A stretch of 64,000 nucleotides of DNA from an uncultured Halomonas sp. (lineage in GTDB: Bacteria; Pseudomonadota; Gammaproteobacteria; Pseudomonadales; Halomonadaceae). This document shows, piece by piece, positions 44,335-44,790 of the stretch. A model generated the notes under the pieces. It searched no databases and had not been told where the DNA came from. It saw only the letters and a program-made list of their open reading frames with translations. The stretch is taken from positions 73,730-137,729 of the forward strand of contig NZ_CAMPKE010000011.1 in the NCBI RefSeq assembly GCF_946887195.1, read 5' to 3'. How positions within the stretch are numbered: the stretch's first letter is position 1; each line of letters starts with the position of its first letter. Made by a program: the position numbers and the translations under genes.

Positions 44335-44790
44335 CTAACCTTGGGCCTCGTCGCCATGTCGGCAATCGTGAACGACATGGCAGACCAACCCCCACAGCCG
44401 GCGGTCGTCGCCCTCGTCGTCCAGCGGCAAGCGTGCCTGGCGGGCATCGCTGCCACGCAGCCAGCGGCGGTGACCGCGGCCCTCCAGCTTGCGCAGCGCC
44501 AGCTGACCATCGATGACCGCGACGACCCAATGCCCAGGATACGGCGTCTGGGCGCGATCGACGATCAGCAGGTCGCCGTGTGCGAAGCCCTCCGCGGCCA
44601 GCGCTTGCCCCTCTACCCGCATGAAGAAGGTCGAGGCCGGATGAGGTATCAACTGCAGGTTGAGATCCAGCGGCGCCTCCCGGTAATCGTCGGCGGGCGA
44701 TGGAAAGCCGTTGGAGCCGCGCCGCTCGGTATGCTCGGGCGTGATCCGGGTGTGACGGCGTTGTGCGGGCGCGAGGCGCTTGACGCTCAT
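44335..44790 (-). CDS. umuD: UmuD-like protein lacking cleavage and catalytic residues
   Basis: A 151-residue member of the UmuD/LexA S24 peptidase fold. It aligns with E. coli UmuD along its length: GFPSPADDY, DLNLQLIPHPASTFFMRVEG, HGDLLIVDRA, VAVIDGQLALRKLE, GLVCHVVHD. Three key positions differ. The cleavage site Cys24-Gly25 is Asn27-Gly28. The catalytic Ser60 is Ala63 (EGQAL, where UmuD has SGDSM). The catalytic Lys97 is Arg100, although a Lys follows at 101. Self-cleavage to UmuD' is therefore not expected. It has 24 residues before the cleavage position, similar to UmuD. GGAGG precedes the ATG. Neighbour umuC appears intact. Confidence 0.88.
   Translation of the reverse strand: MSVKRLAPAQRRHTRITPEHTERRGSNGFPSPADDYREAPLDLNLQLIPHPASTFFMRVEGQALAAEGFAHGDLLIVDRAQTPYPGHWVVAVIDGQLALRKLEGRGHRRWLRGSDARQARLPLDDEGDDRRLWGLVCHVVHDCRHGDEAQG

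What the first reader, a model, noticed from the sequence alone, without database searches (positions are those of the whole stretch)
44335..44790. UmuD-like protein without cleavage site or catalytic dyad
The protein aligns with UmuD throughout, yet the cleavage Cys-Gly is Asn-Gly, catalytic Ser60 is Ala63, and catalytic Lys97 is Arg100. I checked the Ser and Lys regions in the DNA. Self-cleavage to UmuD' should be impossible. The neighbouring UmuC keeps its catalytic acids, and the SOS box is strong, so the pair is probably in use. The protein might act without processing, could be cut by another protease, or might act as a permanent inhibitor of polymerase V.
Basis: partly seen in the sequence, partly recalled or inferred. 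Interest (0 to 1): 0.75.

Follow-up and report, generated by a model that had tools for sequence, protein, structure and literature searches.

The report
UmuD homologues that cannot self-cut
A group of salt-loving bacteria keeps a DNA-damage-induced mutagenic polymerase whose partner protein has lost the self-cutting that normally switches it on, so the pair probably works without that safety step.

Summary
The window protein (151 aa) aligns with UmuD, with Asn27-Gly28, Ala63 and Arg100 at the cleavage, Ser60 and Lys97 positions. It is not a one-off: of 250 genomes of its family, 26 carry a member of the same clade. With the window, 27 of 27 lack the Lys, 25 of 27 the Ser, 27 of 27 an Ala/Cys at the cleavage point; 27 of 27 have umuC next to it and a near-identical SOS box. 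Fifteen of the 26 loci were read at length: all keep the neighbourhood. dN/dS equals that of normal halomonad UmuDs (0.29 versus 0.30), so the gene is in use. Twelve of 26 genomes show no other UmuD. Best explanation (inferred, no experiment): a permanent UmuD'-like subunit, with polymerase V controlled by transcription instead of RecA-triggered cleavage. Another protease or a permanent inhibitor is less likely, not excluded. Similar losses arose elsewhere; in Cyanobium relatives 24 of 151 genomes have a UmuD with arm and site but Ala/Arg, and 21 of these 24 also an armless Ser/Lys UmuD beside umuC, as if substrate and protease were split. The window's own genome was not available.

The parts
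44335..44790 (-). UmuD-like gene without Ser-Lys dyad, 151 aa plus stop
44602..44604 (-). codon GCG, Ala63, at the position of catalytic Ser60 of E. coli UmuD
44491..44493 (-). codon CGC, Arg100, at the position of catalytic Lys97
44707..44712 (-). Asn27-Gly28 at the place of the Cys24-Gly25 cleavage site
44710..44790 (-). N-terminal arm, residues 1-27, without the P-L....V-x-A pattern of canonical UmuDs; its start MSVKRLA fits a clade pattern: [VILM] at residue 3 in 26 of 27, [FILV] at 6 in 24 of 27, Ala at 7 in 21 of 27
43071..44333 (-). umuC, 420 aa plus stop, catalytic motifs kept; one base lies between the umuD stop codon and its start codon
44835..44850 (-). SOS (LexA) box CTGGTTATTTTTACAG; it begins 60 bp before the umuD start codon
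41027..47803 (.). conserved neighbourhood rarA - hemerythrin-like - umuC - umuD - (lysR) - murI-like - trmA, flanked by ftsK/lolA and gdhB
   Evidence: apart from umuC and umuD the gene names are recalled from the look of the proteins and were not run against a family library

Best explanation
It is a UmuD homologue that has permanently lost autoproteolysis and probably serves as a UmuD'-like subunit of a DNA polymerase V that needs no proteolytic activation. Steps shown: homology, the lost dyad and cleavage motif across a clade, operon with an intact umuC, SOS box, purifying selection, inheritance at one chromosomal place. Steps inferred: that the arm does not dock on the globular domain, that the protein pairs with UmuC as UmuD' does, and that activity is therefore set by LexA-controlled transcription (and perhaps turnover) without the RecA-triggered delay known from E. 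coli.
For: Clade-wide loss: in 37 distinct sequences position 100 is Q 11, L 10, R 9, Y 5, H 2, never K, and position 63 is Ser in 2. These two and position 64 show the largest gain in variability of 115 sites against 170 canonical sequences; the canonical set was chosen for having Ser and Lys, so for those two part of the gain is by construction, for position 64 it is not. Arm: canonical UmuDs have P at -9 (82%), L at -8 (75%), V or I at -3 (91%), A at -1 (89%); of 39 clade arms 15 have P at -9, 2 have L at -8, 1 has both, none has V/I at -3 or A at -1. Hydrophobic-Pro-hydrophobic followed by Ala/Cys-Gly: 131 of 164 canonical, 20 of 24 halomonad canonical, 0 of 37 clade. In E. [quoted passage not shown] by my count these are positions -11, -8 and -7. 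Intact umuC in 27 of 27. SOS box in 27 of 27. Globular dN/dS 0.29, canonical halomonads 0.30. No other UmuD found in 12 of 26 genomes. A Melainabacteria-like lineage has also lost the Lys (and mostly the Ser), has about 10 residues before GFPSP, lies next to umuC in the two loci checked, and shows no second UmuD in those two genomes. Phage P1 HumD is a naturally short form (PMC7092418, passages).
Against: No experiment. In E. coli, blocking cleavage alone lowers mutagenesis (S60A) and keeps UmuC at the membrane (K97A) (PMC3901139, PMC4552617, passages), so dyad loss by itself predicts an inhibitor; the reading rests on the changed arm. The shortened UmuD 18 mimics UmuD' only partly in mutagenesis (PMC5342242, passages). 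Arm length is mostly kept: 24-27 residues in 25 of 27 with starts partly chosen by eye, 12 and 20 in two, and the first seven residues keep a pattern, so the arm may still do something. Relative to the globular part the arm evolves no faster than in canonical halomonads (pN ratio 1.66 versus 1.63). Among canonical halomonads, too, only 10 of 24 have Ala/Cys exactly at -1, the others having Ala-Gly a few residues upstream. Arg at -4 is invariant and could mark another protease site. The window's own genome was not available.
Confidence: 0.6

Rival explanations
1. Another protease cuts the arm at the conserved R-[GS]-A-S-G junction, so activation is still proteolytic but not by UmuD itself.
For: Arg at -4 in 39 of 39, Gly at -3 in 35 of 39, Ser at -1 in 37 of 39 clade arms, while the arm before it varies.
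Against: The junction borders the conserved GFPSPADDY of the mature part, so structure alone could conserve it; no protease candidate was looked for or found; arm length ranges from 12 to 27 residues.
Confidence: 0.17
2. It is a permanent inhibitor or checkpoint form: a locked full-length UmuD that holds UmuC and damps mutagenesis.
For: E. coli S60A and K97A proteins behave this way (PMC3901139, PMC4552617, PMC5342242, passages).
Against: Only UmuD found in 12 of 26 genomes, 11 of them with no other umuC match but a DinB-like one; UmuC motifs kept in 27 of 27 (with L117 read); most of the arm motif lost.
Confidence: 0.12
3. A normal UmuD elsewhere in the genome cuts it in trans or replaces it in the polymerase.
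For: 14 of 26 genomes have another UmuD; E. coli UmuD can be cut in trans (PMC5342242, passages); Cyanobium relatives look like a natural split of this kind.
Against: 12 of 26 genomes show none; 36 of 37 clade sequences have no Ala/Cys-Gly in the last 16 arm residues, whereas the Cyanobium substrate copies keep it in 22 of 24; the clade gene has its own umuC in 27 of 27.
Confidence: 0.07
4. Decaying gene on the way out.
For: Catalytic residues lost.
Against: 27 of 27 open, dN/dS 0.29 as in canonical copies, SOS box 27 of 27, synteny 15 of 15 read.
Confidence: 0.02

Closest known systems
E. coli UmuD / UmuD' (polymerase V accessory subunit)
   Different: No Ser-Lys dyad, no Ala/Cys-Gly cleavage site, no P-L arm motif
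HumD of phage P1
   Same: UmuD'-type protein that needs no cutting, with a LexA site; the record note says it functionally complements UmuD', and PMC7092418 calls it an already activated shorter form (passages)
   Different: HumD starts at the UmuD' start and keeps Ser and Lys; its neighbours in the 2 kb read are lxr and phd/doc, not umuC
E. coli engineered UmuD 3A (T14A L17A F18A)
   Same: Full length, arm motif positions lost; considered a UmuD' mimic (PMC5342242, passages)
   Different: Engineered; here the change is natural, fixed in a clade, and joined with loss of the dyad
Ala/Arg UmuD of Cyanobium/Synechococcus relatives
   Same: Ser to Ala and Lys to Arg in 24 of 24
   Different: Keeps arm and cleavage site, not directly before umuC, and in 21 of 24 genomes travels with an armless Ser/Lys UmuD that sits before umuC

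Membership tests
UmuD (autoproteolytic polymerase V subunit) | Peptidase S24 / UmuD' fold | tested here: met
UmuD (autoproteolytic polymerase V subunit) | Operon with umuC and SOS box | tested here: met
UmuD (autoproteolytic polymerase V subunit) | Ser-Lys catalytic dyad | tested here: not met
   Ala63 and Arg100; Lys absent in 37 of 37 clade sequences
UmuD (autoproteolytic polymerase V subunit) | Arm with Ala-Gly or Cys-Gly cleavage site | tested here: not met
UmuD (autoproteolytic polymerase V subunit) | NCBIfam NF007621 score cut-off 110 | tested here: not met
   101.1 bits for the window protein; of two other clade members P0021 has 102.6 and P0009 111.2
UmuD (autoproteolytic polymerase V subunit) | Binding to UmuC and activation of it | not testable with these tools
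   needs experiment
HumD (P1) | Begins at the UmuD' start, without arm | tested here: not met
   27 residues precede Gly28; HumD starts MGFPSP
HumD (P1) | NCBIfam NF051876 cut-off 120 | tested here: not met
   76.3 bits

The most novel reading that the evidence does not exclude
UmuD self-cleavage, taken as the defining switch of polymerase V, has been dismantled repeatedly and by different routes: in this halomonad clade by losing dyad and cleavage motif while keeping the operon (transcription-only control), in a Melainabacteria-like lineage by losing dyad and arm, and in Cyanobium relatives by splitting substrate and protease into two genes, so that activation would need a heterodimer.
Probability: 0.5. 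Interest if true: 0.8.

Novelty: new variant of a known kind. Interest (0 to 1): 0.7.

Why it matters
RecA-triggered UmuD cleavage is the textbook brake that delays mutagenic repair. A vertically inherited, selected umuDC with an SOS box but without that cleavage would show that the brake can be dropped, offers natural UmuD'-like forms for biochemistry of polymerase V, and lets the cost and benefit of the delay be tested in harmless halophiles. It also warns that databases name such proteins 'autoproteolytic subunit' although they lack the means (P0014 and P0017).

Tried and rejected
Second UmuD in the window's own genome: not testable, no genome held.

Asn-Gly as the key argument: weakened. 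Relatives have Ser-Gly, and one canonical halomonad group also has Ser before GFPSP, with an Ala-Gly a few residues upstream.

Arm under specially relaxed selection: rejected by my own control. The arm-to-globular pN ratio is 1.66 in the clade (230 of 351 pairs usable) and 1.63 in 24 canonical halomonads (77 pairs). The first figures (median pairwise dN/dS: arm 0.58, globular 0.28, umuC 0.21) alone would have misled. All these pairs are rather diverged (pS about 0.5-0.6), so the ratios are rough.

Arm motif wholly absent: too strong. Pro at -9 occurs in 15 and Leu at -8 in 2 of 39 clade arms, and hydrophobic-Pro-hydrophobic in 3 of 37.

Ser loss strictly universal: rejected; two of 27 loci (L115, L116) have Ser there, without Lys.

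Plasmid origin: no close plasmid match of the 12 kb region except gdhB-like stretches and two pieces of about 50 and 40 bases.

Promoter scan: no sigma-70-type consensus found, 0.7 expected by chance; nothing concluded.

Papers on naturally dyad-less UmuDs: none seen in open-access full text by the searches (listings and starts of abstracts). Passages were read in PMC4552617, PMC3901139, PMC2921402, PMC7092418, PMC5101192, PMC3744912 and PMC5342242; besides, section 5 of PMC3901139 and the introduction of PMC5342242. The HumD paper and the 2006 paper on a UmuD' mimic are not held; I know them by title in reference lists and by what the papers above say. Subscription literature was not searched.

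Tree limits: 273 sequences thinned to 150, of which 110 went in (the 40 left out are canonical P proteins); 113 columns, many open forks, bootstrap not settled. Six state changes on the best tree, at least four forced by starred branches. L015 and L130 keep Lys and P0110 keeps Ser, each a single row, so three lineages with loss in several rows is the safer reading.

Full report

A clade, not an accident. Of the 120 proteins listed of 267 found, the first 21 (the window's own and P0003-P0022) all lack the Lys, and 19 of 21 the Ser (P0014 and P0017 have it); where named they come from Halomonas, Modicisalibacter, Litchfieldella, Aidingimonas and Chromohalobacter. A search of 250 genomes of the family found 219 with a UmuD match at E 1e-12 and 26 with a member of this group, set apart by a gap in score (4.4e-39 against 1.4e-32). 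All 26 and the window have umuC next to it. On a tree built without the catalytic columns the group (27 rows: the window, 22 of the 26 loci and 4 further proteins; the rest were near-copies) forms one branch, support 100/97. In 37 distinct sequences the Lys position is Q 11, L 10, R 9, Y 5, H 2 and the Ser position D 12, A 10, T 8, G 3, S 2, H 1, N 1. With the next residue (Met in canonical UmuDs) these are the three positions that gained most variability of 115, while the mean variability of the protein is lower than in the canonical set (1.01 against 1.50 bits). The canonical set was chosen for having Ser and Lys, so its zero there is by construction; position 64 is not so chosen. In absolute terms Ser and Lys positions rank 8th and 15th within the clade.

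It is in use. No frame is broken (0 of 27). The box CTG[GT][TC]TATTTTTACAG is present in 27 of 27: 26, and L121, whose start had been called too early. Pooled dN/dS of the globular part is 0.29, against 0.30 for 24 canonical halomonad UmuDs. Of 15 of the 26 loci read over 16 kb, 15 keep the order rarA, hemerythrin-like, umuC, umuD, murI-like, trmA, gdhB; 13 of 15 also show lolA and ftsK (L274 and L282 do not within the stretch), and 11 of 15 the lysR gene (not L271, L273, L283, L284) (names other than umuC and umuD are recalled). The gene is thus most likely inherited vertically.

Is there a normal UmuD to help? Searching the 26 genomes with a canonical UmuD, 14 hold further UmuDs and 12 show nothing beyond weak matches of at most 50 bits, presumably LexA and other S24 proteins (not checked one by one). 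In 11 of those 12 the only other umuC match is DinB-like, at most 69 bits; the twelfth (G037) has a further umuC piece with a stop inside. Draft genomes may be incomplete. The window's own genome is not held.

The arm. Canonical UmuDs carry a motif before the cleavage site: Pro at -9 in 82%, Leu at -8 in 75%, Val or Ile at -3 in 91%, Ala at -1 in 89% of 162-165 sequences. Of 39 clade arms, 15 have Pro at -9, 2 Leu at -8, one both, none Val/Ile at -3, none Ala at -1; instead Arg at -4 in 39, Gly at -3 in 35, Ser at -1 in 37. The Pro motif followed by Ala/Cys-Gly occurs in 131 of 164 canonical, 20 of 24 halomonad canonical and 0 of 37 clade sequences, and the clade's arms are more hydrophilic, -0.87 against +0.21 and, for halomonad canonical ones, +0.41. 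Against an easy story: the arm changes no faster than in canonical halomonads relative to the rest of the protein, its length is mostly kept, and its first seven residues keep a pattern.

How it probably works. In E. coli, UmuC is released from the membrane when UmuD is cleaved; K97A blocks this, and S60A lowers UV mutagenesis (PMC4552617, PMC3901139, passages). [quoted passage not shown] The clade has lost both the dyad and those arm positions. I therefore judge it a constitutive UmuD'-like subunit, with the SOS box as the remaining switch. That last step is inference.

Other lineages. The tree needs six changes between dyad-bearing and dyad-less states, at least four on starred branches. One lineage (Melainabacteria and relatives, 5 rows, 100/99, one of which, L045, keeps Ser) has about 10 residues before GFPSP and sits beside umuC in the two loci checked. 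Another lies inside the Synechococcus-Cyanobium group (8 rows, 100/99). In a 151-genome sample of that cyanobacterial family, 24 genomes have a UmuD with Ala and Arg, 24 of 24 keeping the GFPS site region and 22 with Ala/Cys-Gly; no umuC follows it directly. In 21 of these 24 a second UmuD lies before umuC with Ser and Lys but without arm and site; in the other three (G283, G320, G372) none was found. Of 25 genomes checked that lack the Ala/Arg copy, 25 have a UmuD with arm, site, Ser and Lys; none of them showed an armless copy, though one (G330) has a broken-off piece of a normal UmuD. The other genomes of the sample were not read. E. coli UmuD 18 (arm cut short) cleaves UmuD S60A in trans in the test tube (PMC5342242, passages), the same division of labour by design. 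This contrast bears on the window: a substrate meant for trans cleavage keeps its site; the window's clade has not.

Verdict. A real, conserved, dyad-less UmuD homologue paired with its own umuC: new variant of a known kind. It must not be filed as an autoproteolytic UmuD, since the dyad and site tests fail; it may well work like UmuD'.

Noticed in passing
L165-L189, L194-L270 (genomes G251-G259 and family of G252): Cyanobium/Synechococcus relatives carry two complementary UmuDs: one with arm and cleavage site but Ala/Arg for Ser/Lys, not directly before umuC, and one armless with Ser/Lys before umuC (21 of 24 genomes with the first kind). Looks like protease and substrate split into two genes.
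   Followed up: partly
L188, L189 (G251, G252): A third UmuD-like copy that lacks both the arm site and the dyad (GNG[LM]...LLRP) in two Cyanobium-type genomes.
   Followed up: no
L174, L175 (G260, G261), P0023, P0024, P0040, P0043, P0057: Melainabacteria-type UmuDs with about 10 residues before GFPSP and no Lys, next to umuC in the two loci checked: genes that seem to encode UmuD' directly.
   Followed up: partly
P0014, P0017: Dyad-less clade members are named 'autoproteolytic subunit' in public records.
   Followed up: no
G080 C11 (22893 and 64730), G110 C12 (119815 and 161652), G002 C7 (11576 and 43994): Second-copy umuC genes lie in two pieces on one contig, split near codon 143-150 and 32-42 kb apart, as if a large element had entered umuC.
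   Followed up: no
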